Source: Volvox africanus (Eukaryota > Chlorophyta > Chlorophyceae > Chlamydomonadales > Volvocaceae). Taken from it: a stretch of DNA of 64,000 nucleotides. The stretch's first letter is position 1; each line of letters opens with the position of its first letter. Below, piece after piece: positions 1 to 64,000 of this stretch. Location of the stretch: contig BSDZ01000094.1 in assembly GCA_030268105.1 (NCBI GenBank), positions 186,001 to 250,000 on the forward strand. The letters are read 5' to 3'. Made by a program: the position numbers and the translations under genes. The notes below the pieces were generated by a model. It was not told the origin of the DNA and ran no database searches. It worked only from the letters and a program-made list of their open reading frames with translations.

Positions 1-239
1 GAGCATAATCAGGTCTAAAGGCGAAGGTTTCACAGCTTTCCTTTATCCGGTTGTAACACTGAAGCAAAGTAATTTGAATGGCAATGTAGGGGCGCTTCCG
101 TGTGGCGATAAGAACCCCGTATTACCATAATCGGTCCGCTGTTCGTGGCTTCGGGCCGTACATTGGAACAACAGATTACGTAGGTTCATCGCAAAGGATT
201 TCTTGAGCTCCTATTGAACTGTAATTTCAATTGGTACAA

Positions 240-259
240 TTGAGCTCGCGTAAGCTCAA
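240..259. other. Perfect 7-bp inverted repeat, 6-nt loop
   Basis: The arms TTGAGCT and AGCTCAA enclose CGCGTA. The same structure is present in every unit I read. It could form a small hairpin in RNA from either strand; no function is known. Confidence 0.6.
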
Positions 260-319
260 AGACATCAACACCGCACAAGTGTGTGTTTCACCAATACCGG
301 TTCGGAGGCCCCAAGAGCG

Positions 320-335
320 CAAGGTTATCACCTTG
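320..335. other. Perfect 6-bp inverted repeat, 4-nt loop
   Basis: CAAGGT and ACCTTG flank TATC. It is the second of a series of short foldbacks in the spacer. Confidence 0.55.
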
Positions 336-626
336 TATAGTACTGGTCTTCCCCATAGTAGGGAATCTAAAGTCCTGAAATTCCTTACATAATGCCACCA
401 CTGGACTGTGGCCCACGGTAGCTTGCCGTACACTATCACGTGTCCTGAAATTAATAAAGATGGAGCACGCCGAAGGCCTTCCGGTGCCATCTCCATGATG
501 GGCATGGACGCCCAAGTTGGGGCACCATAATGTCATAATGCCAACGATTGTTGAACCCTTGTATGAACATACATACACCTTAGTGAGAGCCTGCTGCAGT
601 AAAATGCAATTTGGCTGTGCAGCGCT

Positions 627-650: not shown

Positions 651-878
651 GGAGTAAAATCCAAACAGTTCTTCCCAAGTTTTCAGAACAAGTCGCCCAC
701 AGTGTAACACCTAAAAAGCACCCCTCTGTTCTGCTTCAGGGGGAGACTGAGACACTCAAAAAGGGTCATCCAGGCATCGCACGATTTACATGTGGTGTCA
801 CGGAGAGGCCTGCTGCTTGCTCGTCCACTCGTGAGCAACTGCGAGGCTCGAACACCATGGTATTGCACATGCCTGCAG

Positions 879-925: not shown

Positions 926-972
926 ACGCATGCCCTCCCCCTTTGTGCTGTCCCAGGCATGTCTAGTTGAGA

Positions 973-1249: not shown

Positions 1250-2466
1250 AGCTAAGTGACTAAATGCTAGGCACAATACCATGTGTGCAGTTGGGAGTCT
1301 CACTGACTATGAATACCACTTGATGAAGTCCGACTGCCCACCAGCTGTTTAAACCTCCACAGCCCCTCCCCCTCCACTGCATGAAGCCTTAGGTACGATA
1401 AAAAGAACACAGAATATCACATAGCTAAGTGACTAAATGCTAGGCACAAATACCATGTGTGCAGTTGGGAGTCTCACTGACTATGAATACCACTTGATGA
1501 AGTCCGACTGCCCACCAGCTGTTTAAACCTCCACAGCCCCTCCCCCTCCACTGCATGAAGCCTTAGGTACGATAAAAAGAACACAGAATATCACATAGCT
1601 AAGTGACTTAATGCTAGGCACAAATACCATGTGTGCAGTTGGGAGTCTCACTGACTATGAATACCACTTGATGAAGTCCGACTGCCCACCAGCTGTTTAA
1701 ACCTCCACAGCCCCTCCCCCTCCACTGCATGAAGCCTTAGGTACGATAAAAAGAACACAGAATATCACATAGCTAAGTGACTTAATGCTAGGCACAAATA
1801 CCATGTGTGCAGTTGGGAGTCTCACTGACTATGAATACCACTTGATGAAGTCCGACTGCCCACCAGCTGTTTAAACCTCCACAGCCCCTCCCCCTCCACT
1901 GCATGAAGCCTTAGGTACGATAAAAAGAACACAGAATATCACATAGCTAAGTGACTAAATGCTAGGCACAAATACCATGTGTGCAGTTGGGAGTCTCACT
2001 GACTGTGAATACCACTTGATGAAGTCCGACTGCCCACCAGCTGTTTAAACCTCCACAGCCCCTCCCCCTCCACTGCATGAAGCCTTAGGTACGATAAAAA
2101 GAACACAGAATATCACATAGCTAAGTGACTAAATGCTAGGCACAAATACCATGTGTGCAGTTGGGAGTCTCACTGACTATGAATACCACTTGATGAAGTC
2201 CGACTGCCCACCAGCTGTTTAAACCTCCACAGCCCCTCCCCCTCCACTGCATGAAGCCTTAGGTACGATAAAAAGAACACAGAATATCACATAGCTAAGT
2301 GACTAAATGCTAGGCACAAATACCATGTGTGCAGTTGGGAGTCTCACTGACTATGAATACCACTTGATGAAGTCCGACTGCCCACCAGCTGTTTAAACCT
2401 CCACAGCCCCTCCCCCTCCACTGCATGAAGCCTTAGGTACGATAAAAAGAACACAGAATACCACAT
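1250..2466. repeat. 174-bp minisatellite, 7 monomers (unit 1)
   Basis: Monomers start at 1250, 1423, 1597, 1771, 1945, 2119 and 2293. The first is 173 bp because one A is missing from its CACAAATACC segment. Monomer position 1 is the A of AGCTAAG. Variants: type a is the consensus; b has T at position 13; g has G at position 61; c has C at position 9 and T at 13. The order here is a-a-b-b-g-a-a. The last monomer ends ACCACAT instead of ATCACAT, as in every complete unit, which marks the array edge. Each monomer has a C-rich tract at about positions 107-128 and a GTTTAAAC palindrome at about 99-106. Confidence 0.97.
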
Positions 2467-2907
2467 ACAAAACTGGGGGTGCCCGAAAACAAACATGTAC
2501 ATGAGAAAGCTAACCAAACCTGCAAACCCCAGCCTAACATCACGCCTAAGCCGCAGCAGCCACCTGCAAGCCACCACACCGACATCTCTCACGAGAGCCC
2601 TAACATACGTAATGTAAAGTGCCGCGCTATTCAGCCAGTCACCGCCCCTTGGTGCTACTACGGCCATGGTCACGGTCACCATCAGGCCTCAGAGTTTTTA
2701 GTTCCGCTCTAGGTGTCTTGAGTCCCTCTTTTCTTAATAACCGCGTCACCGTCGATTAAGGGTGCAGTGTTTAACAACGCTAAGCATCACGACTTGGCAA
2801 ACAAAATCGATGGCTCGAGATGACCATCTAGCAATCCGGCTAGCTAGCAAGGAGGGTAGTAGGTACATATCAGTGCGTGCACTTCCTGCAAAACCGCCCC
2901 AGCTCGA
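2467..2907. other. Flank between minisatellite and gene 3' end (unit 1)
   Basis: The 441 bp downstream of the minus-strand stop codon. This would hold the 3' untranslated region and transcription end; I see no convincing minus-strand AATAAA or TGTAA signal. A plus-strand Pro/His/Gln-rich open frame (2479-2712) has no in-frame ATG and is not called. A self-complementary GCTAGCTAGC lies near 2838-2847. Confidence 0.6.
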
Positions 2908-5511
2908 TCAGAGCCGAATGCCCCCACGCTGAACACACGGCTCTGTGATTCCCTTGGCAGCCCTTAGGAAGGCCGCCAAGAAAGGGCGCCTCTTGCGGGG
3001 CCCCTCAAGCGAGGCGGCCTTGATGGACGCCGTCCCCCAACGATTGGAGCCACAAAGCTCCATCAGCTTGAGCTGCACATAGGAAATTGCTGGAGCTGCC
3101 GCCTGCTCCTTCCCGAAGGCAACAAGTGGATTGTGCTCGAGGCCTAAAGAGGGCAAAGTGTGTGGGGGAGAGCGAACGTCTCTGTGCCAGAAATCAATTC
3201 ATGTAAGGTGGGCTGCGCTTAGATGTGCAGGCAGACAGCAGGTGGCAAGGCCCACTGCCTGCTGAGTCAGCAGATAGAACAGGATACTTGGGAGCCAAAC
3301 CAGTCAGCAGACCTAGACTCAGGGGTGTCTTTTCACAACCCCTCACACAATGACAACCCCTCAGCAGTACCATGCACCTAGCTAGCATGAGATGGAGCGC
3401 GACGTGCACACCACCAGACTTACTTGCTTCACGAATGGCTTCTGCCAGGGTCGGCTCAAGCGTCTTGGTAAACGCCTGAACCTCCGCCCAGGACGACCAA
3501 TGCTGCTCCCCCGCCCAGGACCGGCAGTCCTGCAGACCCCAGTTCCGTGCCTCAGGGGGCAGACGCCGCTCTGGGGTTTTCGGGTGCGGTTTTGGTGGCT
3601 GCGTGAGCTCCAGGGGTTGGTACAACTCCTGGGGTTGCTGCGCAGCCTTGTTGATGAAAATGGAAGCGGCACCAGCATCTGCGACTTCGACTGCAGAAGG
3701 CGGACTCGTGGCGCCCATAGCAGGACAGCTGGCGGCAGGGATGATGGCAAATTTGGCAGTGATGCTGCTGCCCTGCAGGTCTGTAGAGGCCCCGGAAAGG
3801 CCCCCCTTCCTGGCCTCCATCATGGCGGCCCCCGACCTCAGCTTCTCGAGTTGCGAAATCAAATCTGACACCTGCAGATAAAAGAGCGAACATCCAGCAG
3901 TTGTCGGGTTTTGTATACATAAGACTATGTTGCTTCGATGACTTCTTGCCCACGCACCTGGACTTGGAAGCCCTCGAAGCCCTCAGCTTCGGTGGTCTCG
4001 TCCAACCTGTATGGAAAAGGCATGGGTGGGGTTGCAGGTGTAAGCAAGAGATCCCAGCATTGTGGGTTTCGGGTAAACAGGAAGTCGCACATCCGAAACA
4101 CGTACTCCTTCATGCATTTGCCGCCACGTACTCAGACCTCCACGCACTACCACGTCACTCCGCCGTACACCTAGTTATACACTGCACCTACCGCTGATAT
4201 GCTAGCTCAATGGCCGCCGCTGCTCCCGCCAACCCCGACGGGGCCATCACGCCACCCGCGCATTGCTGCACGTTGTTCTCCTCACTCTCCAGCTGCGGCT
4301 CCTGCTGGCAGAGAACGAGACACACAAAAAAGCTTTTCATCAGTTAGTGCACCGTTTACGTGCGTAGACATGGAACATCTGCATCACGGAAAGCATCTTG
4401 ATGTGTTTCCGAGGGGGTATTGGACGTCCAAACACAAGCGCATGTACACAAATTAGTTTCGGCGACATCTGAACGACGACAAAATAACGACATGGATGAT
4501 GAGCCCACCCCCGTGTCACCCTCGGGCAACTCCCTCCGTCCGTCTCCCCTCCCCTCGGAAACCATGTTCCCCATTCGCCTCCCCTGAGAAGCGCTTTCCT
4601 GCAGGCACTTTGCAACCAACACAGTGCAGCACAAGCCGCGCACTGGTATGAGAAAGGCGACCTCCTCCCCGGAACCCCCTCAGGCGTCAGGTCTGACCCA
4701 CCACCTGCTGCGCTGCTGGAACTGGCTGGGCTTCCAGTTGGGCTCCGGCCTGGTGAAGATTCTCGGGCGCGCCCTTCTGTTGTGCGCACGCAAAAGACGG
4801 GGGGTCGACACGTTGGTCGATAGTCAGCAAGCGGTGCGGGTCGGCGCATGGCCCAATCACATCGAGCGACTGTCAGACAAGCGACCCCCAAGGCATCTCA
4901 ACACCCATCACCACTGCTGGAGCAAACTCCTGATCAGCTCAAACTCACCCAGGATAGCAGGACCTTAAGCAGAGTCCCCTTCTCAGCTATTTGCAGGCGC
5001 CGCGCGGACAACCGCTCCTGCAACGTCAAGGATTCTTCGCCCTCGAGCTTCCCGAACCGCTGAAGAGGCTGCGACAGAAAAGGTGGAAGGGATGGGATGT
5101 CACGGAATGACCGAAAAAAGACGGAATCGAAGAAAACATAAACGACGACGAAAGGCAGGCTTGATGGGAGTTGGCCTTACTTAGAACTGAACATCAGGAA
5201 AGACAGCAACACGAATTCACCTTTTCTGTCGGAATCCACTTGCGGCTAAACTTCTTCATTAGTTCACGCAAAGGAGTGACGACCACTCCACCTGCAGGCT
5301 GCTCTACAGCTTTGCCATTTAGGCAGCTGCTGTTGCTCATAACGCTGTCATTATCGTTAGCGGTGCTGTTGGTGTCCGAGATTGTGTCGATCCTCTCATA
5401 AGCACGATCCTTAGGCTTGAAGCCCAGTTTCACCAACAGCGAGATCATGGCTGACGCCTGGACAGCCGGGTCGTGGTCAAGGAGCCGGTAATCGAAGCGT
5501 CCAATGAAGCA
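2908..5511 (-). CDS. Seven-exon split gene, unknown function, copy 1
   Basis: Exons in transcript order: 5221-5511, 4949-5059, 4705-4776, 4192-4304, 3958-4006, 3424-3871, 2908-3143. All six introns (161, 172, 400, 185, 86 and 280 nt) are GT-AG, with donors GTGAAT, GTGAGT, GTGGTG, GTAGGT, GTGCGT and GTAAGT. The exon phases close exactly (0,0,0,2,0,1), giving 1,320 nt and 439 residues ending in TGA. I do not recognise the family. Visible traits: Asn/Ser/Asp-rich stretch at residues 42-65, a charged Leu-rich helix-like exon at 98-134, Ala-rich 184-191, Pro/Gln-rich 290-318, four tryptophans at 323, 331, 337 and 340, and a basic PRKRRP at 410-415 that could be a nuclear signal. There is no signal peptide or clear membrane segment. 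The 5' end is uncertain: an in-frame TAG precedes exon 1, serving either as an acceptor or as the limit before an ATG at residue 22 (418 residues). Exon 3 is the weakest exon. Confidence 0.62.
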
Positions 5512-6967: not shown

Positions 6968-8184
6968 AGCTAAGTGACTAAATGCTAGGCACAATACCAT
7001 GTGTGCAGTTGGGAGTCTCACTGACTATGAATACCACTTGATGAAGTCCGACTGCCCACCAGCTGTTTAAACCTCCACAGCCCCTCCCCCTCCACTGCAT
7101 GAAGCCTTAGGTACGATAAAAAGAACACAGAATATCACATAGCTAAGTGACTAAATGCTAGGCACAAATACCATGTGTGCAGTTGGGAGTCTCACTGACT
7201 ATGAATACCACTTGATGAAGTCCGACTGCCCACCAGCTGTTTAAACCTCCACAGCCCCTCCCCCTCCACTGCATGAAGCCTTAGGTACGATAAAAAGAAC
7301 ACAGAATATCACATAGCTAAGTGACTTAATGCTAGGCACAAATACCATGTGTGCAGTTGGGAGTCTCACTGACTATGAATACCACTTGATGAAGTCCGAC
7401 TGCCCACCAGCTGTTTAAACCTCCACAGCCCCTCCCCCTCCACTGCATGAAGCCTTAGGTACGATAAAAAGAACACAGAATATCACATAGCTAAGTGACT
7501 TAATGCTAGGCACAAATACCATGTGTGCAGTTGGGAGTCTCACTGACTATGAATACCACTTGATGAAGTCCGACTGCCCACCAGCTGTTTAAACCTCCAC
7601 AGCCCCTCCCCCTCCACTGCATGAAGCCTTAGGTACGATAAAAAGAACACAGAATATCACATAGCTAAGTGACTAAATGCTAGGCACAAATACCATGTGT
7701 GCAGTTGGGAGTCTCACTGACTGTGAATACCACTTGATGAAGTCCGACTGCCCACCAGCTGTTTAAACCTCCACAGCCCCTCCCCCTCCACTGCATGAAG
7801 CCTTAGGTACGATAAAAAGAACACAGAATATCACATAGCTAAGTGACTAAATGCTAGGCACAAATACCATGTGTGCAGTTGGGAGTCTCACTGACTATGA
7901 ATACCACTTGATGAAGTCCGACTGCCCACCAGCTGTTTAAACCTCCACAGCCCCTCCCCCTCCACTGCATGAAGCCTTAGGTACGATAAAAAGAACACAG
8001 AATATCACATAGCTAAGTGACTAAATGCTAGGCACAAATACCATGTGTGCAGTTGGGAGTCTCACTGACTATGAATACCACTTGATGAAGTCCGACTGCC
8101 CACCAGCTGTTTAAACCTCCACAGCCCCTCCCCCTCCACTGCATGAAGCCTTAGGTACGATAAAAAGAACACAGAATACCACAT
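6968..8184. repeat. 174-bp minisatellite, 7 monomers (unit 2)
   Basis: Same length, same one-base deletion in the first monomer and the same variant order (a-a-b-b-g-a-a) as in unit 1. Confidence 0.97.
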
Positions 8185-8625
8185 ACAAAACTGGGGGTGC
8201 CCGAAAACAAACATGTACATGAGAAAGCTAACCAAACCTGCAAACCCCAGCCTAACATCACGCCTAAGCCGCAGCAGCCACCTGCAAGCCACCACACCGA
8301 CATCTCTCACGAGAGCCCTAACATACGTAATGTAAAGTGCCGCGCTATTCAGCCAGTCACCGCCCCTTGGTGCTACTACGGCCATGGTCACGGTCACCAT
8401 CAGGCCTCAGAGTTTTTAGTTCCGCTCTAGGTGTCTTGAGTCCCTCTTTTCTTAATAACCGCGTCACCGTCGATTAAGGGTGCAGTGTTTAACAACGCTA
8501 AGCATCACGACTTGGCAAACAAAATCGATGGCTCGAGATGACCATCTAGCAATCCGGCTAGCTAGCAAGGAGGGTAGTAGGTACATATCAGTGCGTGCAC
8601 TTCCTGCAAAACCGCCCCAGCTCGA

Positions 8626-11229
8626 TCAGAGCCGAATGCCCCCACGCTGAACACACGGCTCTGTGATTCCCTTGGCAGCCCTTAGGAAGGCCGCCAAGAA
8701 AGGGCGCCTCTTGCGGGGCCCCTCAAGCGAGGCGGCCTTGATGGACGCCGTCCCCCAACGATTGGAGCCACAAAGCTCCATCAGCTTGAGCTGCACATAG
8801 GAAATTGCTGGAGCTGCCGCCTGCTCCTTCCCGAAGGCAACAAGTGGATTGTGCTCGAGGCCTAAAGAGGGCAAAGTGTGTGGGGGAGAGCGAACGTCTC
8901 TGTGCCAGAAATCAATTCATGTAAGGTGGGCTGCGCTTAGATGTGCAGGCAGACAGCAGGTGGCAAGGCCCACTGCCTGCTGAGTCAGCAGATAGAACAG
9001 GATACTTGGGAGCCAAACCAGTCAGCAGACCTAGACTCAGGGGTGTCTTTTCACAACCCCTCACACAATGACAACCCCTCAGCAGTACCATGCACCTAGC
9101 TAGCATGAGATGGAGCGCGACGTGCACACCACCAGACTTACTTGCTTCACGAATGGCTTCTGCCAGGGTCGGCTCAAGCGTCTTGGTAAACGCCTGAACC
9201 TCCGCCCAGGACGACCAATGCTGCTCCCCCGCCCAGGACCGGCAGTCCTGCAGACCCCAGTTCCGTGCCTCAGGGGGCAGACGCCGCTCTGGGGTTTTCG
9301 GGTGCGGTTTTGGTGGCTGCGTGAGCTCCAGGGGTTGGTACAACTCCTGGGGTTGCTGCGCAGCCTTGTTGATGAAAATGGAAGCGGCACCAGCATCTGC
9401 GACTTCGACTGCAGAAGGCGGACTCGTGGCGCCCATAGCAGGACAGCTGGCGGCAGGGATGATGGCAAATTTGGCAGTGATGCTGCTGCCCTGCAGGTCT
9501 GTAGAGGCCCCGGAAAGGCCCCCCTTCCTGGCCTCCATCATGGCGGCCCCCGACCTCAGCTTCTCGAGTTGCGAAATCAAATCTGACACCTGCAGATAAA
9601 AGAGCGAACATCCAGCAGTTGTCGGGTTTTGTATACATAAGACTATGTTGCTTCGATGACTTCTTGCCCACGCACCTGGACTTGGAAGCCCTCGAAGCCC
9701 TCAGCTTCGGTGGTCTCGTCCAACCTGTATGGAAAAGGCATGGGTGGGGTTGCAGGTGTAAGCAAGAGATCCCAGCATTGTGGGTTTCGGGTAAACAGGA
9801 AGTCGCACATCCGAAACACGTACTCCTTCATGCATTTGCCGCCACGTACTCAGACCTCCACGCACTACCACGTCACTCCGCCGTACACCTAGTTATACAC
9901 TGCACCTACCGCTGATATGCTAGCTCAATGGCCGCCGCTGCTCCCGCCAACCCCGACGGGGCCATCACGCCACCCGCGCATTGCTGCACGTTGTTCTCCT
10001 CACTCTCCAGCTGCGGCTCCTGCTGGCAGAGAACGAGACACACAAAAAAGCTTTTCATCAGTTAGTGCACCGTTTACGTGCGTAGACATGGAACATCTGC
10101 ATCACGGAAAGCATCTTGATGTGTTTCCGAGGGGGTATTGGACGTCCAAACACAAGCGCATGTACACAAATTAGTTTCGGCGACATCTGAACGACGACAA
10201 AATAACGACATGGATGATGAGCCCACCCCCGTGTCACCCTCGGGCAACTCCCTCCGTCCGTCTCCCCTCCCCTCGGAAACCATGTTCCCCATTCGCCTCC
10301 CCTGAGAAGCGCTTTCCTGCAGGCACTTTGCAACCAACACAGTGCAGCACAAGCCGCGCACTGGTATGAGAAAGGCGACCTCCTCCCCGGAACCCCCTCA
10401 GGCGTCAGGTCTGACCCACCACCTGCTGCGCTGCTGGAACTGGCTGGGCTTCCAGTTGGGCTCCGGCCTGGTGAAGATTCTCGGGCGCGCCCTTCTGTTG
10501 TGCGCACGCAAAAGACGGGGGGTCGACACGTTGGTCGATAGTCAGCAAGCGGTGCGGGTCGGCGCATGGCCCAATCACATCGAGCGACTGTCAGACAAGC
10601 GACCCCCAAGGCATCTCAACACCCATCACCACTGCTGGAGCAAACTCCTGATCAGCTCAAACTCACCCAGGATAGCAGGACCTTAAGCAGAGTCCCCTTC
10701 TCAGCTATTTGCAGGCGCCGCGCGGACAACCGCTCCTGCAACGTCAAGGATTCTTCGCCCTCGAGCTTCCCGAACCGCTGAAGAGGCTGCGACAGAAAAG
10801 GTGGAAGGGATGGGATGTCACGGAATGACCGAAAAAAGACGGAATCGAAGAAAACATAAACGACGACGAAAGGCAGGCTTGATGGGAGTTGGCCTTACTT
10901 AGAACTGAACATCAGGAAAGACAGCAACACGAATTCACCTTTTCTGTCGGAATCCACTTGCGGCTAAACTTCTTCATTAGTTCACGCAAAGGAGTGACGA
11001 CCACTCCACCTGCAGGCTGCTCTACAGCTTTGCCATTTAGGCAGCTGCTGTTGCTCATAACGCTGTCATTATCGTTAGCGGTGCTGTTGGTGTCCGAGAT
11101 TGTGTCGATCCTCTCATAAGCACGATCCTTAGGCTTGAAGCCCAGTTTCACCAACAGCGAGATCATGGCTGACGCCTGGACAGCCGGGTCGTGGTCAAGG
11201 AGCCGGTAATCGAAGCGTCCAATGAAGCA
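8626..11229 (-). CDS. Split gene of unknown function, copy 2
   Basis: Exons in transcript order: 10939-11229, 10667-10777, 10423-10494, 9910-10022, 9676-9724, 9142-9589, 8626-8861. I found no difference from copy 1 in exons or introns. As in every copy, all splice dinucleotides and the terminal stop are intact. Confidence 0.62.
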
Positions 11230-12685: not shown

Positions 12686-13903
12686 AGCTAAGTGACTAAA
12701 TGCTAGGCACAAATACCATGTGTGCAGTTGGGAGTCTCACTGACTATGAATACCACTTGATGAAGTCCGACTGCCCACCAGCTGTTTAAACCTCCACAGC
12801 CCCTCCCCCTCCACTGCATGAAGCCTTAGGTACGATAAAAAGAACACAGAATATCACATAGCTAAGTGACTAAATGCTAGGCACAAATACCATGTGTGCA
12901 GTTGGGAGTCTCACTGACTATGAATACCACTTGATGAAGTCCGACTGCCCACCAGCTGTTTAAACCTCCACAGCCCCTCCCCCTCCACTGCATGAAGCCT
13001 TAGGTACGATAAAAAGAACACAGAATATCACATAGCTAAGTGACTTAATGCTAGGCACAAATACCATGTGTGCAGTTGGGAGTCTCACTGACTATGAATA
13101 CCACTTGATGAAGTCCGACTGCCCACCAGCTGTTTAAACCTCCACAGCCCCTCCCCCTCCACTGCATGAAGCCTTAGGTACGATAAAAAGAACACAGAAT
13201 ATCACATAGCTAAGTGACTTAATGCTAGGCACAAATACCATGTGTGCAGTTGGGAGTCTCACTGACTATGAATACCACTTGATGAAGTCCGACTGCCCAC
13301 CAGCTGTTTAAACCTCCACAGCCCCTCCCCCTCCACTGCATGAAGCCTTAGGTACGATAAAAAGAACACAGAATATCACATAGCTAAGTGACTAAATGCT
13401 AGGCACAAATACCATGTGTGCAGTTGGGAGTCTCACTGACTGTGAATACCACTTGATGAAGTCCGACTGCCCACCAGCTGTTTAAACCTCCACAGCCCCT
13501 CCCCCTCCACTGCATGAAGCCTTAGGTACGATAAAAAGAACACAGAATATCACATAGCTAAGTCACTTAATGCTAGGCACAAATACCATGTGTGCAGTTG
13601 GGAGTCTCACTGACTATGAATACCACTTGATGAAGTCCGACTGCCCACCAGCTGTTTAAACCTCCACAGCCCCTCCCCCTCCACTGCATGAAGCCTTAGG
13701 TACGATAAAAAGAACACAGAATATCACATAGCTAAGTGACTAAATGCTAGGCACAAATACCATGTGTGCAGTTGGGAGTCTCACTGACTATGAATACCAC
13801 TTGATGAAGTCCGACTGCCCACCAGCTGTTTAAACCTCCACAGCCCCTCCCCCTCCACTGCATGAAGCCTTAGGTACGATAAAAAGAACACAGAATACCA
13901 CAT
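12686..13903. repeat. 174-bp minisatellite, 7 monomers (unit 3)
   Basis: All seven monomers are full length (1,218 bp). Order a-a-b-b-g-c-a: the sixth monomer is type c, where units 1 and 2 have type a, giving a g-c pair like those that dominate unit 5. Confidence 0.97.
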
Positions 13904-14344
13904 ACAAAACTGGGGGTGCCCGAAAACAAACATGTACATGAGAAAGCTAACCAAACCTGCAAACCCCAGCCTAACATCACGCCTAAGCCGCAGCAGCCAC
14001 CTGCAAGCCACCACACCGACATCTCTCACGAGAGCCCTAACATACGTAATGTAAAGTGCCGCGCTATTCAGCCAGTCACCGCCCCTTGGTGCTACTACGG
14101 CCATGGTCACGGTCACCATCAGGCCTCAGAGTTTTTAGTTCCGCTCTAGGTGTCTTGAGTCCCTCTTTTCTTAATAACCGCGTCACCGTCGATTAAGGGT
14201 GCAGTGTTTAACAACGCTAAGCATCACGACTTGGCAAACAAAATCGATGGCTCGAGATGACCATCTAGCAATCCGGCTAGCTAGCAAGGAGGGTAGTAGG
14301 TACATATCAGTGCGTGCACTTCCTGCAAAACCGCCCCAGCTCGA

Positions 14345-50494: not shown

Positions 50495-52234
50495 AGCTAA
50501 GTGACTAAATGCTAGGCACAAATACCATGTGTGCAGTTGGGAGTCTCACTGACTATGAATACCACTTGATGAAGTCCGACTGCCCACCAGCTGTTTAAAC
50601 CTCCACAGCCCCTCCCCCTCCACTGCATGAAGCCTTAGGTACGATAAAAAGAACACAGAATATCACATAGCTAAGTGACTTAATGCTAGGCACAAATACC
50701 ATGTGTGCAGTTGGGAGTCTCACTGACTATGAATACCACTTGATGAAGTCCGACTGCCCACCAGCTGTTTAAACCTCCACAGCCCCTCCCCCTCCACTGC
50801 ATGAAGCCTTAGGTACGATAAAAAGAACACAGAATATCACATAGCTAAGTGACTAAATGCTAGGCACAAATACCATGTGTGCAGTTGGGAGTCTCACTGA
50901 CTGTGAATACCACTTGATGAAGTCCGACTGCCCACCAGCTGTTTAAACCTCCACAGCCCCTCCCCCTCCACTGCATGAAGCCTTAGGTACGATAAAAAGA
51001 ACACAGAATATCACATAGCTAAGTGACTAAATGCTAGGCACAAATACCATGTGTGCAGTTGGGAGTCTCACTGACTATGAATACCACTTGATGAAGTCCG
51101 ACTGCCCACCAGCTGTTTAAACCTCCACAGCCCCTCCCCCTCCACTGCATGAAGCCTTAGGTACGATAAAAAGAACACAGAATATCACATAGCTAAGTGA
51201 CTAAATGCTAGGCACAAATACCATGTGTGCAGTTGGGAGTCTCACTGACTGTGAATACCACTTGATGAAGTCCGACTGCCCACCAGCTGTTTAAACCTCC
51301 ACAGCCCCTCCCCCTCCACTGCATGAAGCCTTAGGTACGATAAAAAGAACACAGAATATCACATAGCTAAGTCACTTAATGCTAGGCACAAATACCATGT
51401 GTGCAGTTGGGAGTCTCACTGACTATGAATACCACTTGATGAAGTCCGACTGCCCACCAGCTGTTTAAACCTCCACAGCCCCTCCCCCTCCACTGCATGA
51501 AGCCTTAGGTACGATAAAAAGAACACAGAATATCACATAGCTAAGTGACTTAATGCTAGGCACAAATACCATGTGTGCAGTTGGGAGTCTCACTGACTAT
51601 GAATACCACTTGATGAAGTCCGACTGCCCACCAGCTGTTTAAACCTCCACAGCCCCTCCCCCTCCACTGCATGAAGCCTTAGGTACGATAAAAAGAACAC
51701 AGAATATCACATAGCTAAGTGACTAAATGCTAGGCACAAATACCATGTGTGCAGTTGGGAGTCTCACTGACTGTGAATACCACTTGATGAAGTCCGACTG
51801 CCCACCAGCTGTTTAAACCTCCACAGCCCCTCCCCCTCCACTGCATGAAGCCTTAGGTACGATAAAAAGAACACAGAATATCACATAGCTAAGTGACTTA
51901 ATGCTAGGCACAAATACCATGTGTGCAGTTGGGAGTCTCACTGACTATGAATACCACTTGATGAAGTCCGACTGCCCACCAGCTGTTTAAACCTCCACAG
52001 CCCCTCCCCCTCCACTGCATGAAGCCTTAGGTACGATAAAAAGAACACAGAATATCACATAGCTAAGTGACTAAATGCTAGGCACAAATACCATGTGTGC
52101 AGTTGGGAGTCTCACTGACTATGAATACCACTTGATGAAGTCCGACTGCCCACCAGCTGTTTAAACCTCCACAGCCCCTCCCCCTCCACTGCATGAAGCC
52201 TTAGGTACGATAAAAAGAACACAGAATACCACAT
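50495..52234. repeat. 174-bp minisatellite, 10 monomers (unit 8)
   Basis: 1,740 bp. Order: a b g a g c b g b a. The first five monomers match the first five of unit 7 and the last four match the last four of units 7 and 9, so these arrays are related by internal gain or loss. Confidence 0.97.
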
Positions 52235-52675
52235 ACAAAACTGGGGGTGCCCGAAAACAAACATGTACATGAGAAAGCTAACCAAACCTGCAAACCCCAG
52301 CCTAACATCACGCCTAAGCCGCAGCAGCCACCTGCAAGCCACCACACCGACATCTCTCACGAGAGCCCTAACATACGTAATGTAAAGTGCCGCGCTATTC
52401 AGCCAGTCACCGCCCCTTGGTGCTACTACGGCCATGGTCACGGTCACCATCAGGCCTCAGAGCCTTTAGTTCCGCTCTAGGTGTCTTGAGTCCCTCTTTT
52501 CTTAATAACCACGTCACCGTCGATTAAGGGTTTAGTGTTTAACAACGCTAAGCATCACGACTTGGCAAACAAAATCGATGGCTCGAGATGACCATCTAGC
52601 AATCCGGCTAGCTAGCAAGGAGGGTAGTAGGTACATATCAGTGCGTGCACTTCCTGCAAAACCGCCCCAGCTCGA

Positions 52676-55279
52676 TCAGAGCCGAATGCCCCCACGCTGA
52701 ACACACGGCTCTGTGATTCCCTTGGCAGCCCTTAGGAAGGCCGCCAAGAAAGGGCGCCTCTTGCGGGGCCCCTCAAGCGAGGCGGCCTTGATGGACGCCG
52801 TCCCCCAACGATTGGAGCCACAAAGCTCCATCAGCTTGAGCTGCACATAGGAAATTGCTGGAGCTGCCGCCTGCTCCTTCCCGAAGGCAACAAGTGGATT
52901 GTGCTCGAGGCCTAAAGAGGGCAAAGTGTGTGGGGGAGAGCGAACGTCTCTGTGCCAGAAATCAATTCATGTAAGGTGGGCTGCGCTTAGATGTGCAGGC
53001 AGACAGCAGGTGGCAAGGCCCACTGCCTGCTGAGTCAGCAGATAGAACAGGATACTTGGGAGCCAAACCAGTCAGCAGACCTAGACTCAGGGGTGTCTTT
53101 TCACAACCCCTCACACAATGACAACCCCTCAGCAGTACCATGCACCTAGCTAGCATGAGATGGAGCGCGACGTGCACACCACCAGACTTACTTGCTTCAC
53201 GAATGGCTTCTGCCAGGGTCGGCTCAAGCGTCTTGGTAAACGCCTGAACCTCCGCCCAGGACGACCAATGCTGCTCCCCCGCCCAGGACCGGCAGTCCTG
53301 CAGACCCCAGTTCCGTGCCTCAGGGGGCAGACGCCGCTCTGGGGTTTTCGGGTGCGGTTTTGGTGGCTGCGTGAGCTCCAGGGGTTGGTACAACTCCTGG
53401 GGTTGCTGCGCAGCCTTGTTGATGAAAATGGAAGCGGCACCAGCATCTGCGACTTCGACTGCAGAAGGCGGACTCGTGGCGCCCATAGCAGGACAGCTGG
53501 CGGCAGGGATGATGGCAAATTTGGCAGTGATGCTGCTGCCCTGCAGGTCTGTAGAGGCCCCGGAAAGGCCCCCCTTCCTGGCCTCCATCATGGCGGCCCC
53601 CGACCTCAGCTTCTCGAGTTGCGAAATCAAATCTGACACCTGCAGATAAAAGAGCGAACATCCAGCAGTTGTCGGGTTTTGTATACATAAGACTATGTTG
53701 CTTCGATGACTTCTTGCCCACGCACCTGGACTTGGAAGCCCTCGAAGCCCTCAGCTTCGGTGGTCTCGTCCAACCTGTATGGAAAAGGCATGGGTGGGGT
53801 TGCAGGTGTAAGCAAGAGATCCCAGCATTGTGGGTTTCGGGTAAACAGGAAGTCGCACATCCGAAACACGTACTCCTTCATGCATTTGCCGCCACGTACT
53901 CAGACCGCCACGCACTACCACGTCACTCCGCCGTACACCTAGTTATACACTGCACCTACCGCTGATATGCTAGCTCAATGGCCGCCGCTGCTCCCGCCAA
54001 CCCCGACGGGGCCATCACGCCACCCGCGCATTGCTGCACGTTGTTCTCCTCACTCTCCAGCTGCGGCTCCTGCTGGCAGAGAACGAGACACACAAAAAAG
54101 CTTTTCATCAGTTAGTGCACCGTTTACGTGCGTAGACATGGAACATCTGCATCACGGAAAGCATCTTGATGTGTTTCCGAGGGGGTATTGGACGTCCAAA
54201 CACAAGCGCATGTACACAAATTAGTTTCGGCGACATCTGAACGACGACAAAATAACGACATGGATGATGAGCCCACCCCCGTGTCACCCTCGGGCAACTC
54301 CCTCCGTCCGTCTCCCCTCCCCTCGGAAACCATGTTCCCCATTCGCCTCCCCTGAGAAGCGCTTTCCTGCAGGCACTTTGCAACCAACACAGTGCAGCAC
54401 AAGCCGCGCACTGGTATGAGAAAGGCGACCTCCTCCCCGGAACCCCCTCAGGCGTCAGGTCTGACCCACCACCTGCTGCGCTGCTGGAACTGGCTGGGCT
54501 TCCAGTTGGGCTCCGGCCTGGTGAAGATTCTCGGGCGCGCCCTTCTGTTGTGCGCACGCAAAAGACGGGGGGTCGACACGTTGGTCGATAGTCAGCAAGC
54601 GGTGCGGGTCGGCGCATGGCCCAATCACATCGAGCGACTGTCAGACAAGCGACCCCCAAGGCATCTCAACACCCATCACCACTGCTGGAGCAAACTCCTG
54701 ATCAGCTCAAACTCACCCAGGATAGCAGGACCTTAAGCAGAGTCCCCTTCTCAGCTATTTGCAGGCGCCGCGCGGACAACCGCTCCTGCAACGTCAAGGA
54801 TTCTTCGCCCTCGAGCTTCCCGAACCGCTGAAGAGGCTGCGACAGAAAAGGTGGAAGGGATGGGATGTCACGGAATGACCGAAAAAAGACGGAATCGAAG
54901 AAAACATAAACGACGACGAAAGGCAGGCTTGATGGGAGTTGGCCTTACTTAGAACTGAACATCAGGAAAGACAGCAACACGAATTCACCTTTTCTGTCGG
55001 AATCCACTTGCGGCTAAACTTCTTCATTAGTTCACGCAAAGGAGTGACGACCACTCCACCTGCAGGCTGCTCTACAGCTTTGCCATTTAGGCAGCTGCTG
55101 TTGCTCATAACGCTGTCATTATCGTTAGCGGTGCTGTTGGTGTCCGAGATTGTGTCGATCCTCTCATAAGCACGATCCTTAGGCTTGAAGCCCAGTTTCA
55201 CCAACAGCGAGATCATGGCTGACGCCTGGACAGCCGGGTCGTGGTCAAGGAGCCGGTAATCGAAGCGTCCAATGAAGCA
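52676..55279 (-). CDS. Split gene of unknown function, copy 8
   Basis: Exons in transcript order: 54989-55279, 54717-54827, 54473-54544, 53960-54072, 53726-53774, 53192-53639, 52676-52911. The exons match the other copies; the private GC-to-TT change at 52532-52533 lies about 140 bp beyond the stop codon, in the 3' flank. Confidence 0.62.
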
Positions 55280-56737: not shown

Positions 56738-58477
56738 AGCTAAGTGACTAAATGCTAGGCACAAATACCATGTGTGCAGTTGGGAGTCTCACTGACTATG
56801 AACACCACTTGATGAAGTCCGACTGCCCACCAGCTGTTTAAACCTCCACAGCCCCTCCCCCTCCACTGCATGAAGCCTTAGGTACGATAAAAAGAACACA
56901 GAATATCACATAGCTAAGTGACTAAATGCTAGGCACAAATACCATGTGTGCAGTTGGGAGTCTCACTGACTATGAACACCACTTGATGAAGTCCGACTGC
57001 CCACCAGCTGTTTAAACCTCCACAGCCCCTCCCCCTCCACTGCATGAAGCCTTAGGTACGATAAAAAGAACACAGAATATCACATAGCTAAGTGACTAAA
57101 TGCTAGGCACAAATACCATGTGTGCAGTTGGGAGTCTCACTGACTATGAACACCACTTGATGAAGTCCGACTGCCCACCAGCTGTTTAAACCTCCACAGC
57201 CCCTCCCCCTCCACTGCATGAAGCCTTAGGTACGATAAAAAGAACACAGAATATCACATAACTAAGTGACTAAATGCTAGGCACAAATACCATGTGTGCA
57301 GTTGGGAGTCTCACTGACTATGAACACCACTTGATGAAGTCCGACTGCCCACCAGCTGTTTAAACCTCCACAGCCCCTCCCCCTCCACTGCATGAAGCCT
57401 TAGGTACGATAAAAAGAACACAGAATATCACATAGCTAAGTGACTAAATGCTAGGCACAAATACCATGTGTGCAGTTGGGAGTCTCACTGACTATGAATA
57501 CCACTTGATGAAGTCCGACTGCCCACCAGCTGTTTAAACCTCCACAGCCCCTCCCCCTCCACTGCATGAAGCCTTAGGTACGATAAAAAGAACACAGAAT
57601 ATCGCATAGCTAAGTGACTAAATGCTAGGCACAAATACCATGTGTGCAGTTGGGAGTCTCACTGACTATGAATACCACTTGATGAAGTCCGACTGCCCAC
57701 CAGCTGTTTAAACCTCCACAGCCCCTCCCCCTCCACTGCATGAAGCCTTAGGTACGATAAAAAGAACACAGAATATCACATAGCTAAGTGACTTAATGCT
57801 AGGCACAAATACCATGTGTGCAGTTGGGAGTCTCACTGACTATGAATACCACTTGATGAAGTCCGACTGCCCACCAGCTGTTTAAACCTCCACAGCCCCT
57901 CCCCCTCCACTGCATGAAGCCTTAGGTACGATAAAAAGAACACAGAATATCACATAGCTAAGTGACTAAATGCTAGGCACAAATACCATGTGTGCAGTTG
58001 GGAGTCTCACTGACTGTGAATACCACTTGATGAAGTCCGACTGCCCACCAGCTGTTTAAACCTCCACAGCCCCTCCCCCTCCACTGCATGAAGCCTTAGG
58101 TACGATAAAAAGAACACAGAATATCACATAGCTAAGTGACTTAATGCTAGGCACAAATACCATGTGTGCAGTTGGGAGTCTCACTGACTATGAATACCAC
58201 TTGATGAAGTCCGACTGCCCACCAGCTGTTTAAACCTCCACAGCCCCTCCCCCTCCACTGCATGAAGCCTTAGGTACGATAAAAAGAACACAGAATATCA
58301 CATAGCTAAGTGACTAAATGCTAGGCACAAATACCATGTGTGCAGTTGGGAGTCTCACTGACTATGAATACCACTTGATGAAGTCCGACTGCCCACCAGC
58401 TGTTTAAACCTCCACAGCCCCTCCCCCTCCACTGCATGAAGCCTTAGGTACGATAAAAAGAACACAGAATACCACAT
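56738..58477. repeat. 174-bp minisatellite, 10 monomers (unit 9)
   Basis: 1,740 bp. The first four monomers have C at position 66 (GAACACC instead of GAATACC), a type seen only in units 9 and 10; the fourth also starts AACTAAG. Then a, a, b, g, b, a, with an ATCGCAT end on monomer 5 (about 57603). Confidence 0.97.
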
Positions 58478-58918
58478 ACAAAACTGGGGGTGCCCGAAAA
58501 CAAACATGTACATGAGAAAGCTAACCAAACCTGCAAACCCCAGCCTAACATCACGCCTAAGCCGCAGCAGCCACCTGCAAGCCACCACACCGACATCTCT
58601 CACGAGAGCCCTAACATACGTAATGTAAAGTGCCGCGCTATTCAGCCAGTCACCGCCCCTTGGTGCTACTACGGCCATGGTCACGGTCACCATCAGGCCT
58701 CAGAGCCTTTAGTTCCGCTCTAGGTGTCTTGAGTCCCTCTTTTCTTAATAACCACGTCACCGTCGATTAAGGGTGCAGTGTTTAACAACGCTAAGCATCA
58801 CGACTTGGCAAACAAAATCGATGGCTCGAGATGACCATCTAGCAATCCGGCTAGCTAGCAAGGAGGGTAGTAGGTACATATCAGTGCGTGCACTTCCTGC
58901 AAAACCGCCCCAGCTCGA

Positions 58919-61522
58919 TCAGAGCCGAATGCCCCCACGCTGAACACACGGCTCTGTGATTCCCTTGGCAGCCCTTAGGAAGGCCGCCAAGAAAGGGCGC
59001 CTCTTGCGGGGCCCCTCAAGCGAGGCGGCCTTGATGGACGCCGTCCCCCAACGATTGGAGCCACAAAGCTCCATCAGCTTGAGCTGCACATAGGAAATTG
59101 CTGGAGCTGCCGCCTGCTCCTTCCCGAAGGCAACAAGTGGATTGTGCTCGAGGCCTAAAGAGGGCAAAGTGTGTGGGGGAGAGCGAACGTCTCTGTGCCA
59201 GAAATCAATTCATGTAAGGTGGGCTGCGCTTAGATGTGCAGGCAGACAGCAGGTGGCAAGGCCCACTGCCTGCTGAGTCAGCAGATAGAACAGGATACTT
59301 GGGAGCCAAACCAGTCAGCAGACCTAGACTCAGGGGTGTCTTTTCACAACCCCTCACACAATGACAACCCCTCAGCAGTACCATGCACCTAGCTAGCATG
59401 AGATGGAGCGCGACGTGCACACCACCAGACTTACTTGCTTCACGAATGGCTTCTGCCAGGGTCGGCTCAAGCGTCTTGGTAAACGCCTGAACCTCCGCCC
59501 AGGACGACCAATGCTGCTCCCCCGCCCAGGACCGGCAGTCCTGCAGACCCCAGTTCCGTGCCTCAGGGGGCAGACGCCGCTCTGGGGTTTTCGGGTGCGG
59601 TTTTGGTGGCTGCGTGAGCTCCAGGGGTTGGTACAACTCCTGGGGTTGCTGCGCAGCCTTGTTGATGAAAATGGAAGCGGCACCAGCATCTGCGACTTCG
59701 ACTGCAGAAGGCGGACTCGTGGCGCCCATAGCAGGACAGCTGGCGGCAGGGATGATGGCAAATTTGGCAGTGATGCTGCTGCCCTGCAGGTCTGTAGAGG
59801 CCCCGGAAAGGCCCCCCTTCCTGGCCTCCATCATGGCGGCCCCCGACCTCAGCTTCTCGAGTTGCGAAATCAAATCTGACACCTGCAGATAAAAGAGCGA
59901 ACATCCAGCAGTTGTCGGGTTTTGTATACATAAGACTATGTTGCTTCGATGACTTCTTGCCCACGCACCTGGACTTGGAAGCCCTCGAAGCCCTCAGCTT
60001 CGGTGGTCTCGTCCAACCTGTATGGAAAAGGCATGGGTGGGGTTGCAGGTGTAAGCAAGAGATCCCAGCATTGTGGGTTTCGGGTAAACAGGAAGTCGCA
60101 CATCCGAAACACGTACTCCTTCATGCATTTGCCGCCACGTACTCAGACCTCCACGCACTACCACGTCACTCCGCCGTACACCTAGTTATACACTGCACCT
60201 ACCGCTGATATGCTAGCTCAATGGCCGCCGCTGCTCCCGCCAACCCCGACGGGGCCATCACGCCACCCGCGCATTGCTGCACGTTGTTCTCCTCACTCTC
60301 CAGCTGCGGCTCCTGCTGGCAGAGAACGAGACACACAAAAAAGCTTTTCATCAGTTAGTGCACCGTTTACGTGCGTAGACATGGAACATCTGCATCACGG
60401 AAAGCATCTTGATGTGTTTCCGAGGGGGTATTGGACGTCCAAACACAAGCGCATGTACACAAATTAGTTTCGGCGACATCTGAACGACGACAAAATAACG
60501 ACATGGATGATGAGCCCACCCCCGTGTCACCCTCGGGCAACTCCCTCCGTCCGTCTCCCCTCCCCTCGGAAACCATGTTCCCCATTCGCCTCCCCTGAGA
60601 AGCGCTTTCCTGCAGGCACTTTGCAACCAACACAGTGCAGCACAAGCCGCGCACTGGTATGAGAAAGGCGACCTCCTCCCCGGAACCCCCTCAGGCGTCA
60701 GGTCTGACCCACCACCTGCTGCGCTGCTGGAACTGGCTGGGCTTCCAGTTGGGCTCCGGCCTGGTGAAGATTCTCGGGCGCGCCCTTCTGTTGTGCGCAC
60801 GCAAAAGACGGGGGGTCGACACGTTGGTCGATAGTCAGCAAGCGGTGCGGGTCGGCGCATGGCCCAATCACATCGAGCGACTGTCAGACAAGCGACCCCC
60901 AAGGCATCTCAACACCCATCACCACTGCTGGAGCAAACTCCTGATCAGCTCAAACTCACCCAGGATAGCAGGACCTTAAGCAGAGTCCCCTTCTCAGCTA
61001 TTTGCAGGCGCCGCGCGGACAACCGCTCCTGCAACGTCAAGGATTCTTCGCCCTCGAGCTTCCCGAACCGCTGAAGAGGCTGCGACAGAAAAGGTGGAAG
61101 GGATGGGATGTCACGGAATGACCGAAAAAAGACGGAATCGAAGAAAACATAAACGACGACGAAAGGCAGGCTTGATGGGAGTTGGCCTTACTTAGAACTG
61201 AACATCAGGAAAGACAGCAACACGAATTCACCTTTTCTGTCGGAATCCACTTGCGGCTAAACTTCTTCATTAGTTCACGCAAAGGAGTGACGACCACTCC
61301 ACCTGCAGGCTGCTCTACAGCTTTGCCATTTAGGCAGCTGCTGTTGCTCATAACGCTGTCATTATCGTTAGCGGTGCTGTTGGTGTCCGAGATTGTGTCG
61401 ATCCTCTCATAAGCACGATCCTTAGGCTTGAAGCCCAGTTTCACCAACAGCGAGATCATGGCTGACGCCTGGACAGCCGGGTCGTGGTCAAGGAGCCGGT
61501 AATCGAAGCGTCCAATGAAGCA
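58919..61522 (-). CDS. Split gene of unknown function, copy 9
   Basis: Exons in transcript order: 61232-61522, 60960-61070, 60716-60787, 60203-60315, 59969-60017, 59435-59882, 58919-59154. Intron 4 has T at 60150 as in units 1-3, although the flanking unit carries later-type marks; this looks like a converted or recombined patch. Confidence 0.62.
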
Positions 61523-61729
61523 CTATCGCTAAGCAAATCGTTGAGATGTATTACTCAATAAACGACACTAAGGTTTTGTCTAGAGGCAAACGGTTGTGTT
61601 GACAGGCCAAAGCCTGTTCTTTGGAGTCTCTCTAAGGAATTCGAAAGCAATTATGGAAAATGGTTTTAAAATAACTAGTTAGGATGTTAATGGGTCACAC
61701 AGGGTGGGCTATGGTTATGTAGAGCGACG

Positions 61730-64000
61730 GAGCATAATCAGGTCTAAAGGCGAAGGTTTCACAGCTTTCCTTTATCCGGTTGTAACACTGAAGCAAAGTA
61801 ATTTGAATGGCAATGTAGGGGCGCTTCCGTGTGGCGATAAGAACCCCGTATTACCATAATCGGTAATCGCTGTTCGTGGCTTCGGGCCGTACATTGGAAC
61901 AACAGATTACGTAGGTTCATCGCAAAGGATTTCTTGAGCTCCTATTGAACTGTAATTTCAATTGGTACAATTGAGCTCGCGTAAGCTCAAAGACATCAAC
62001 ACCGCACAAGTGTGTGTTTCACCAATACCGGTTCGGAGGCCCCAAGAGCGCAAGGTTATCACCTTGTATAGTACTGGTCTTCCCCATAGTAGGGAATCTA
62101 AAGTCCTGAAATTCCTTACATAATGCGACCACTGGACTGTGGCCCACGGTAGCTTGCCGTACACTATCACGTGTCCTGAAATTAATAAAGATGGAGCACG
62201 CCGAAGGCCTTCCGGTGCCATCTCCATGATGGGCATGGACGCCCAAGTTGGGGCACCATAATGTCATAATGCCAACGATTGTTGAACCCTTGTATGAACA
62301 TACATACACCTTAGTGAGAGCCTGCTGCAGTAAAATGCAATTTGGCTGTGCAGCGCTGCATGGAGATACAGCTCTCCATGCGGAGTAAAATCCAAACAGT
62401 TCTTCCCAAGTTTTCAGAACAAGTCGCCCACAGTGTAACACCTAAAAAGCACCCCTCTGTTCTGCTTCAGGGGGAGACTGAGACACTCAAAAAGGGTCAT
62501 CCAGGCATCGCACGATTTACATGTGGTGTCACGGAGAGGCCTGCTGCTTGCTCGTCCACTCGTGAGCAACTGCGAGGCTCGAACACCATGGTATTGCACA
62601 TGCCTGCAGCACATGCATGCGCACACACGCATATGCACACATACGCCCACAGAGGCACGCATGCCCTCCCCCTTTGTGCTGTCCCAGGCATGTCTAGTTG
62701 AGAGTCCCCTGTAAATAAACTGGTCACATGCCATGTCGTCATGGCAGATTATGACACCAGCCTAATCACTTGAGAAGGATGTTAAATAGCTCATTAATCA
62801 GATCAATTAACAAACACGGTTCACAAGCTCCTATCGGTCAGAATCCAATGATGAACAGTTGACAACCATCTAGGGTTCAGATCCACTAACAAACACATTT
62901 GACACGCTCCTATTGGTTAGGGTCCACTAATGAATGGCAGATAAGAAACTATGCAACTAAAACTATATCAGGTCTATGACAGCTAAGTGACTAAATGCTA
63001 GGCACAAATACCATGTGTGCAGTTGGGAGTCTCACTGACTATGAACACCACTTGATGAAGTCCGACTGCCCACCAGCTGTTTAAACCTCCACAGCCCCTC
63101 CCCCTCCACTGCATGAAGCCTTAGGTACGATAAAAAGAACACAGAATATCACATAGCTAAGTGACTAAATGCTAGGCACAAATACCATGTGTGCAGTTGG
63201 GAGTCTCACTGACTATGAACACCACTTGATGAAGTCCGACTGCCCACCAGCTGTTTAAACCTCCACAGCCCCTCCCCCTCCACTGCATGAAGCCTTAGGT
63301 ACGATAAAAAGAACACAGAATATCACATAGCTAAGTGACTAAATGCTAGGCACAAATACCATGTGTGCAGTTGGGAGTCTCACTGACTATGAACACCACT
63401 TGATGAAGTCCGACTGCCCACCAGCTGTTTAAACCTCCACAGCCCCTCCCCCTCCACTGCATGAAGCCTTAGGTACGATAAAAAGAACACAGAATATCAC
63501 ATAACTAAGTGACTAAATGCTAGGCACAAATACCATGTGTGCAGTTGGGAGTCTCACTGACTATGAACACCACTTGATGAAGTCCGACTGCCCACCAGCT
63601 GTTTAAACCTCCACAGCCCCTCCCCCTCCACTGCATGAAGCCTTAGGTACGATAAAAAGAACACAGAATATCACATAGCTAAGTGACTAAATGCTAGGCA
63701 CAAATACCATGTGTGCAGTTGGGAGTCTCACTGACTATGAATACCACTTGATGAAGTCCGACTGCCCACCAGCTGTTTAAACCTCCACAGCCCCTCCCCC
63801 TCCACTGCATGAAGCCTTAGGTACGATAAAAAGAACACAGAATATCGCATAGCTAAGTGACTAAATGCTAGGCACAAATACCATGTGTGCAGTTGGGAGT
63901 CTCACTGACTATGAATACCACTTGATGAAGTCCGACTGCCCACCAGCTGTTTAAACCTCCACAGCCCCTCCCCCTCCACTGCATGAAGCCTTAGGTACGA
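61730..64000. repeat. Macrosatellite unit 10 (partial, cut by window end)
   Basis: Contains leading spacer 61730-62980 and the first 1,020 bp of the minisatellite. Everything visible appears identical to the corresponding part of unit 9, including four GAACACC monomers and one monomer starting with AACTAAG. The gene of this unit lies beyond the window. Confidence 0.95.
62981..64000. repeat. 174-bp minisatellite, about 5.9 monomers (unit 10, cut)
   Basis: Four GAACACC monomers, the fourth starting AACTAAG, then a consensus monomer ending ATCGCAT and most of a sixth. It repeats the left side of the unit 9 array monomer for monomer. The true length is unknown because the window ends. Confidence 0.95.

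What the first reader, a model, noticed from the sequence alone, without database searches (positions are those of the whole stretch)
1..64000. Gene-bearing macrosatellite filling the whole window
Nine complete and one partial head-to-tail units of about 5.7 kb (4.8-10.8 kb with minisatellite changes) each carry the same minus-strand split gene. Families of this architecture (rDNA, the D4Z4/DUX4 array, tandem U2 snRNA genes) serve dosage or chromatin roles. I do not recognise this gene or unit.
Basis: partly seen in the sequence, partly recalled or inferred. Interest (0 to 1): 0.85.

Follow-up and report, generated by a model that had tools for sequence, protein, structure and literature searches.

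The report
Volvox macrosatellite of an orphan gene
The window is part of a long head-to-tail array in the alga Volvox africanus, in which the same seven-exon gene of unknown function is repeated well over a hundred times with its coding parts kept nearly free of changes, a kind of gene-bearing satellite known from human chromosomes.

Summary
The window (G000:C91:186001-250000; inferred Volvox africanus 1101-NZ-11) holds nine complete units: a core of about 4.5 kb plus 2 to 36 copies of a 174-bp minisatellite. Each core carries one intact seven-exon minus-strand gene (420-421 aa). Genome-wide an exon-7 tag has 146 matches (100 listed); array stretches on seven contigs sum to about 0.78 Mb. C33 and C91 each break off inside the array.

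The gene looks real. Coding sequence is identical in all nine window copies. In 14 copies, 1 of 50 substitution sites is exonic, and it is synonymous (nominal p about 1e-6). Splice sites are shared with a diverged paralog (dN/dS 0.47). That paralog has one 174-bp copy, and its homology ends just past a shared TGTAA, so the minisatellite probably lies in the 3' UTR.

Protein relatives were found only in V. africanus, V. reticuliferus and one unnamed sequence; no known domain. Most likely this is a recently amplified, recombination-homogenised macrosatellite that raises dosage of an orphan protein; expression was not testable. rDNA, RNA-gene, transposon and pseudogene readings are not supported. 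The kind is known; the gene and lineage are new.

The parts
2908..5448 (-). Gene copy 1: 7 exons 5448-5221, 5068-4949, 4776-4705, 4301-4192, 4006-3958, 3871-3424, 3143-2908; 420 aa (421 if exon 3 uses the next donor)
   Evidence: exon 3 with the extra GTG as in annotated VaNZ11_014997
8626..11166 (-). Gene copy 2, identical CDS
14345..16885 (-). Gene copy 3, identical CDS
19194..21724 (-). Gene copy 4, identical CDS; 10-bp deletion in the intron between exons 3 and 4
29949..32489 (-). Gene copy 5, identical CDS
39844..42384 (-). Gene copy 6, identical CDS
46433..48973 (-). Gene copy 7, identical CDS
52676..55216 (-). Gene copy 8, identical CDS
58919..61459 (-). Gene copy 9, identical CDS
1250..2467 (-). 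174-bp minisatellite block, 7 copies, downstream of gene copy 1 (inferred 3' UTR)
6968..8185 (-). 174-bp minisatellite block, 7 copies
12686..13904 (-). 174-bp minisatellite block, 7 copies
18405..18753 (-). 174-bp minisatellite block, 2 copies (shortest unit)
23244..29508 (-). 174-bp minisatellite block, about 36 copies (longest unit)
   Evidence: TRF fuses this block with the next; split here by the core boundaries
34009..39403 (-). 174-bp minisatellite block, about 31 copies
43904..45992 (-). 174-bp minisatellite block, 12 copies
50495..52235 (-). 174-bp minisatellite block, 10 copies
56738..58478 (-). 174-bp minisatellite block, 10 copies
62981..64000 (-). 174-bp minisatellite block, at least 5.9 copies, cut by the window end
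786..790 (-). TGTAA (read on the minus strand), inferred polyadenylation signal of the gene whose coding part ends at 2908; the same site recurs in the next unit (6504-6508)
   Evidence: aligned TGTAA in the C86 paralog, homology ends about 15 nt further on. That TGTAA is the volvocine signal is recalled, not from a call.

Best explanation
A gene-bearing macrosatellite in the nuclear genome of Volvox africanus (Thai strain). SHOWN: many near-identical units (146 tag matches), each sampled unit a core of about 4.5 kb with a complete 7-exon gene plus a variable number of 174-bp repeats, with coding sequence far less variable than the rest of the unit. STRONGLY INFERRED: a member of a small dispersed gene family, so far seen only in the V. 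africanus / V. reticuliferus lineage, was duplicated head to tail. Unequal exchange and gene conversion then spread and homogenised the units and changed the number of 174-bp repeats, while selection removed coding changes. INFERRED: each unit is a separate transcription unit with its own upstream region of about 0.6 kb; the minisatellite lies in its 3' UTR, which ends at a TGTAA some 460 bp into what looks like the next unit. LEAST CERTAIN: the array works by dosage, supplying many templates for a 45-kDa protein, apparently soluble, with a conserved C-terminal region.
For: Array geometry. Genome-wide: 146 matches to a 38-mer of exon 7 with up to 3 mismatches (100 listed) and 706 to a 36-mer of the minisatellite. 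C33 (right end) and C91 (left end) break inside the array. Gene: 9 of 9 window copies have identical CDS and intact splice sites. 23 substitution sites in the window's cores, 0 exonic (p=5e-4); 14 copies, 50 sites, 1 exonic and synonymous (p=1.4e-6; 40 clustered events, p=3e-5). Exon/intron structure, ATG and stop shared with a C86 paralog; exons 5.5-19% diverged, introns 16-29%; dN 0.109, dS 0.232, Fisher p=2e-5. Three full-length annotated homologs of 420-425 aa in V. africanus JP, 80-82%. 3' end: one 174-bp copy in the paralog, homology stops just past a shared TGTAA.
Against: No expression data were available. Of 17 gene copies tested for an open frame, 3 (L050, L056, L063), all near contig ends, have frame-breaking indels; these may be sequencing errors or real dead copies. 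Within the gene span of the window copies alone there are only 3 variant sites, none exonic, which is not significant (p=0.13). dN/dS of 0.47 is not strong constraint, and the C86 copies used for it are doubtful (one lacks exon 4; both look one base short at the end of exon 1); per-exon ratios were obtained for exons 1-4 only: 0.51, 1.02, 0.28, 0.18. Even synonymous changes look scarce in the array (1 seen, roughly 5 expected by my own estimate from the noncoding rate), so part of the exon deficit may come from mutation or conversion bias. A TGTAA is expected by chance about once per kb, and another one occurs further on in the unit.
Confidence: 0.68

Rival explanations
1. Selfish amplification, of the kind of Stellate or other drive-associated tandem genes: the array expanded because the product or the locus biases its own transmission; selection on the coding sequence serves the driver, not the alga.
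Against: No drive phenotype or suppressor known to me; the species is homothallic (PMC10291315), so selfing leaves little room for meiotic drive; no targeting domain found.
Confidence: 0.14
2. By-product of recombination: a gene of little importance happened to seed a satellite, and copies are kept similar only by recent expansion and conversion.
For: Adjacent units are most alike (window copies 2 and 3 differ from copy 1 at 1 and 2 positions); 174-bp copy number is unstable; dispersed relatives include fragments (C77) and a copy lacking an exon (C86).
Against: A neutral array should vary as much in exons as elsewhere: 1 of 50 substitution sites is exonic against 28% of the sequence.
Confidence: 0.1
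3. Structural or chromatin element (centromere, heterochromatin block or silencing source) in which the gene is incidental.
For: About 0.78 Mb at contig breaks; a different 160-bp satellite adjoins the array on C33; minisatellite CpG o/e 0.22.
Against: Among the places listed only two contigs with other sequence, C33 and C91, hold tandem array, so it is unlikely to be a centromere common to all chromosomes; coding constraint; core CpG o/e 0.73 like its surroundings.
Confidence: 0.05
4. Assembly artefact or collapsed/expanded repeat.
For: Contigs end in the array; copy number from an assembly is only approximate; copies at contig ends show error-like indels.
Against: Unit lengths differ (2 to 36 minisatellite copies in the window); three array edges on C91 and the left edge on C33 join other DNA; libraries of 20-30 kb at 197x.
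Confidence: 0.03

Closest known systems
RS447 / USP17 macrosatellite (human 4p16.1)
   Same: Unit of similar size (4.7 kb), one protein-coding gene per unit, 20-103 units (PMC3599962, passages seen).
   Different: Encodes a recognisable deubiquitinase; human. Here a multi-exon orphan gene and a nested 174-bp minisatellite.
D4Z4 / DUX4, CT47 and FLJ40296/PRR20 macrosatellites (human)
   Same: Protein-coding macrosatellites; CT47 units 4.8 kb, FLJ40296 6.6 kb (PMC3599962, passages); D4Z4 3.3 kb (abstract of PMC4278900 in the listing).
   Different: Different genes; D4Z4 is subject to epigenetic repression, untested here.
RNU2 array and rDNA
   Same: Head-to-tail units; RNU2 units are 6.1 kb (PMC3599962).
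   Different: Products are structural RNAs; no Rfam family matched here.
Stellate tandem genes of Drosophila (recalled, not from a call)
   Same: Many near-identical copies of a spliced protein-coding gene of narrow phylogenetic range.
   Different: No sequence comparison made; no suppressor or germ-line role known here.
Volvox hypothetical proteins Vafri_14240, Vafri_14406, Vafri_5499, Vafri_1633, VaNZ11_014843, Vretimale_1623, Vretimale_12794
   Same: Homologs of the gene, 52-82% identical.
   Different: Annotated as separate hypothetical proteins with no function; no array of them is mentioned in what I saw of the papers.

Membership tests
Gene-bearing macrosatellite | Kilobase-scale units repeated head to tail, tens of copies or more, over hundreds of kb | tested here: met
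Gene-bearing macrosatellite | A complete gene in each unit | tested here: met
   9 of 9 window copies; 14 of 17 copies tested in all
Gene-bearing macrosatellite | Copy number varies between individuals | not testable with these tools
   one assembly only
Functional protein-coding gene | Coding sequence constrained relative to noncoding | tested here: met
Functional protein-coding gene | Transcribed and translated | not testable with these tools
   annotated models exist in VaNZ11, JP and V. reticuliferus; the TH annotation used transcriptome data (PMC10291315, passages), but support for this gene was not seen
rDNA or other RNA-gene array | Match to an Rfam family or tRNA | tested here: not met
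Transposable element array | Transposase, integrase or reverse transcriptase domain | tested here: not met
Transposable element array | Fixed ends with terminal repeats or target-site duplications | tested here: inconclusive
   edges at different unit positions (773, 788, 927, 975; 45, 474, 527, 1402); flanks printed and compared with each other, no systematic target-site search
Subtelomeric repeat | Next to telomere repeats | tested here: inconclusive
   C91 ends in telomere on the far side; the chromosome end on the array side is unknown

The most novel reading that the evidence does not exclude
A haploid alga keeps a near-megabase array of a lineage-specific gene whose copies are individually policed by selection. 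That would require dosage dependence on very many copies, harmful effects of altered copies, or a self-promoting (drive-like) product, and the variable 3'-UTR minisatellite would tune each copy's output.
Probability: 0.15. Interest if true: 0.75.

Novelty: new member of a known kind. Interest (0 to 1): 0.5.

Why it matters
Coding macrosatellites are known best from mammals (recalled; the comparison paper seen, PMC3599962, is on human arrays). A copy-rich one in a haploid, culturable, sequenced alga, with a diverged single-repeat relative in the same genome, gives a simple system for asking how selection acts on one copy among more than a hundred and how a minisatellite expands inside a gene's inferred 3' UTR. 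No description of it came up in the searches, of which I saw listings, plus passages of PMC10291315 and PMC8226300; the library holds only openly licensed papers, and no supplementary files were read.

Tried and rejected
rDNA or small-RNA array: no Rfam or tRNA match. Phage or plasmid DNA: no match with one 4.3-kb stretch. Viral origin: 27 pattern matches in viral contigs, none a relative. Transposon: no domain above threshold in Pfam or, for P0001 and P0006, in NCBIfam; the weak Pfam hits (best E 0.015, DUF6993 and DUF592 in the exon-1 frame; best 0.08) are taken as chance. Fold: the AlphaFold2 model of P0001 (10-row alignment) had mean pLDDT 32.8 and pTM 0.18, too poor for a fold search, so none was run; no PDB sequence match. 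Subtelomeric satellite: the repeat next to C16's telomere looks different by eye. Not done: no DNA of V. africanus JP or V. reticuliferus was fetched, so whether they hold an array is open; read depth and expression could not be seen.

Rows dropped: one search used 14 copies (9 in the window, L053, L054, L057, L058, L067); several of the five outside copies are partial and lack noncoding flank, which works against the result rather than for it. L050, L056, L059 and L063 lie at contig ends and were left out for error-like indels. Had they been kept, one search lists in their exons 7 indels (1 in L050, 1 in L056, 5 in L063) and 4 substitution calls (two adjacent bases in L063, and the synonymous site already counted, in L056 and in L063). 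L005 (one more intact copy) was not. The variant-site test treats sites as independent, although copies share ancestry. The tree left out P0010, P0011 and P0013 and used trimmed P0004 and P0012.
Full report
WHAT THE WINDOW IS. The window is bases 186001-250000 of a 5,851,727-bp contig (C91) in a 140,993,249-bp, 126-contig genome. The gene's protein matches the partial 216-residue model VaNZ11_014997 of Volvox africanus at 100% over the aligned part, and the assembly size fits the 141.0 Mbp reported for V. africanus strain 1101-NZ-11 from Thailand (129 contigs there, 126 here; PMC10291315, passages seen). The strain is therefore inferred. Telomere-type repeats TTTTAGGG are present in the genome and close C91's right end.

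THE ARRAY. All 1-kb bins of the window consist 98-100% of repeated 24-mers. Nine complete cores of 4,490-4,502 bp at 99.5-100% identity stand in one orientation, separated by 2 to 36 copies of a 174-bp minisatellite. On C91 the array occupies 1-48.5 kb with the gene on the plus strand and about 181.2-301.6 kb with the gene on the minus strand. Of the roughly 132 kb between, only 48.5-57 and 174-181.2 kb were read; they hold other sequence, with at least one recognisable gene fragment (peptidase S41, E 2e-29) and a weak protein-kinase match below Pfam's cut-off.

COPY NUMBER. An exon-7 38-mer with up to 3 mismatches has 146 matches, 106 forward and 40 reverse. The 100 listed are C33 21 (20 in tandem at its right end and one solo copy at 281 kb), C34 18, C89 43, C90 12 and the first 6 of C91. 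The other 46 were not listed; the exon-6 matches show 29 copies on C91 in all, and further copies on C123 and C124, which by spacing account for about 44 of the 46, so one or two may be dispersed relatives. C34, C89, C123 and C124 are 98, 229, 76 and 37 kb long and, with C90, have matches along their listed length, so they look like array throughout, though only parts were read. Summing array stretches from these coordinates gives about 0.78 Mb; this is an estimate, and C90's end was not read. One reading is a single locus between C33's right end and C91's left end; this is inference.

THE GENE. Each window unit carries a minus-strand gene of seven exons with GT-AG introns and a 420-residue product; if exon 3 ends three bases later, as in the annotated VaNZ11_014997, it has 421. 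All nine window copies have identical coding sequence. Of 17 copies tested, 14 are open and three, near contig ends, carry frame-breaking indels. Product: 45.4 kDa, pI 6.9, no strongly hydrophobic segment, no Pfam or PDB relative and no NCBIfam match for two homologs. The predicted structure was uninformative.

IS IT UNDER SELECTION? In the nine window cores 23 substitution sites were found, none in the 1,263 exonic of 4,500 bases (binomial p=5e-4); inside the gene span alone there are only 3, none exonic (p=0.13). With five copies from other places (C91 right edge, two from C89, one from C123, the C33 solo copy) there are 50 sites, one exonic and synonymous (p=1.4e-6; after merging neighbours 1 of 40, p=3e-5); inside the gene span, 1 of 17 (p=1.5e-4) (synonymy). 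Against a paralog on C86, exons diverge by 5.5-19% and introns by 16-29%; dN 0.109, dS 0.232, ratio 0.47 (Fisher p=2e-5). That paralog may be decaying. Per-exon ratios came out for exons 1 to 4 only (0.51, 1.02, 0.28, 0.18), because the script stopped at exon 5.

WHERE THE MINISATELLITE LIES. The C86 copy aligns with the array unit past the stop codon, through one copy of the 174-bp segment, and on to a TGTAA at the same place, about 15 nt after which similarity ends. In the array unit no other TGTAA lies between the stop codon and that point; a second one lies about 400 bp beyond it. So the 174-bp segment was probably single at first, lay in the 3' UTR and expanded there. Upstream, similarity with C86 starts about 590 bp before the ATG. 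The apparent unit boundary at the minisatellite is thus probably not the gene's boundary.

RELATIVES. Two protein searches found 13 proteins at E<=1: nine V. africanus entries (Vafri or VaNZ11 names), two from V. reticuliferus, one unnamed sequence of source 'lgn' (taken from memory to mean the Logan assemblies), and one that the window itself encodes. Each search scored only the 7,997 candidates sharing most words, so absence elsewhere, including V. carteri, is provisional. Four of the JP proteins form two close pairs, each pair on one contig length; the relation of the array gene to the JP genes is unresolved. In the TH genome, dispersed relatives lie on C86 (four places) and C77 (fragments in both orientations, one with a stop).

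READING. The simplest account is a member of a young, fast-evolving Volvox gene family that was amplified head to tail and is kept alike by recombination, with coding changes removed. A role through dosage is the likeliest purpose but is inferred. A drive-like or other selfish role fits the narrow distribution and cannot be excluded. A paper on human macrosatellites (PMC3599962, passages) gives the closest comparison in kind; passages of a paper on Chlamydomonas genomes (PMC8226300) mention satellite DNA and centromeric LINEs but nothing like this array.

Noticed in passing
L065 (C33:1-1500), L055 7168-7547: A different satellite of about 160 bp fills the first 1.5 kb of C33 and adjoins the left edge of the array; a 35-mer of it has 1,096 matches in the genome, the first 100 listed being on C1, C23, C32 and C33.
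   Followed up: partly
L016 (C16 end): The telomere of C16 is preceded by a tandem repeat of roughly 200 bp (by eye) that looks unrelated to the array.
   Followed up: no
L062 (C77:5353500-5358500): Fragments of the same gene family at about 87-97% identity lie in opposite orientations, as if inverted and broken.
   Followed up: no
L057 (C33:276000-285500): A solo array-type copy, about 330 kb from the C33 array, truncated at unit position 975 and shortly after one 174-bp repeat, with an intact coding sequence.
   Followed up: partly
P0013 (Vafri_11646): A V. africanus JP relative carries a many-fold repeat of a short motif of the type QQASEEDM after the conserved N-terminal part.
   Followed up: no
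window 1250-2467: The 174-bp minisatellite is poor in CpG (o/e 0.22) while the gene core is not (0.73).
   Followed up: no
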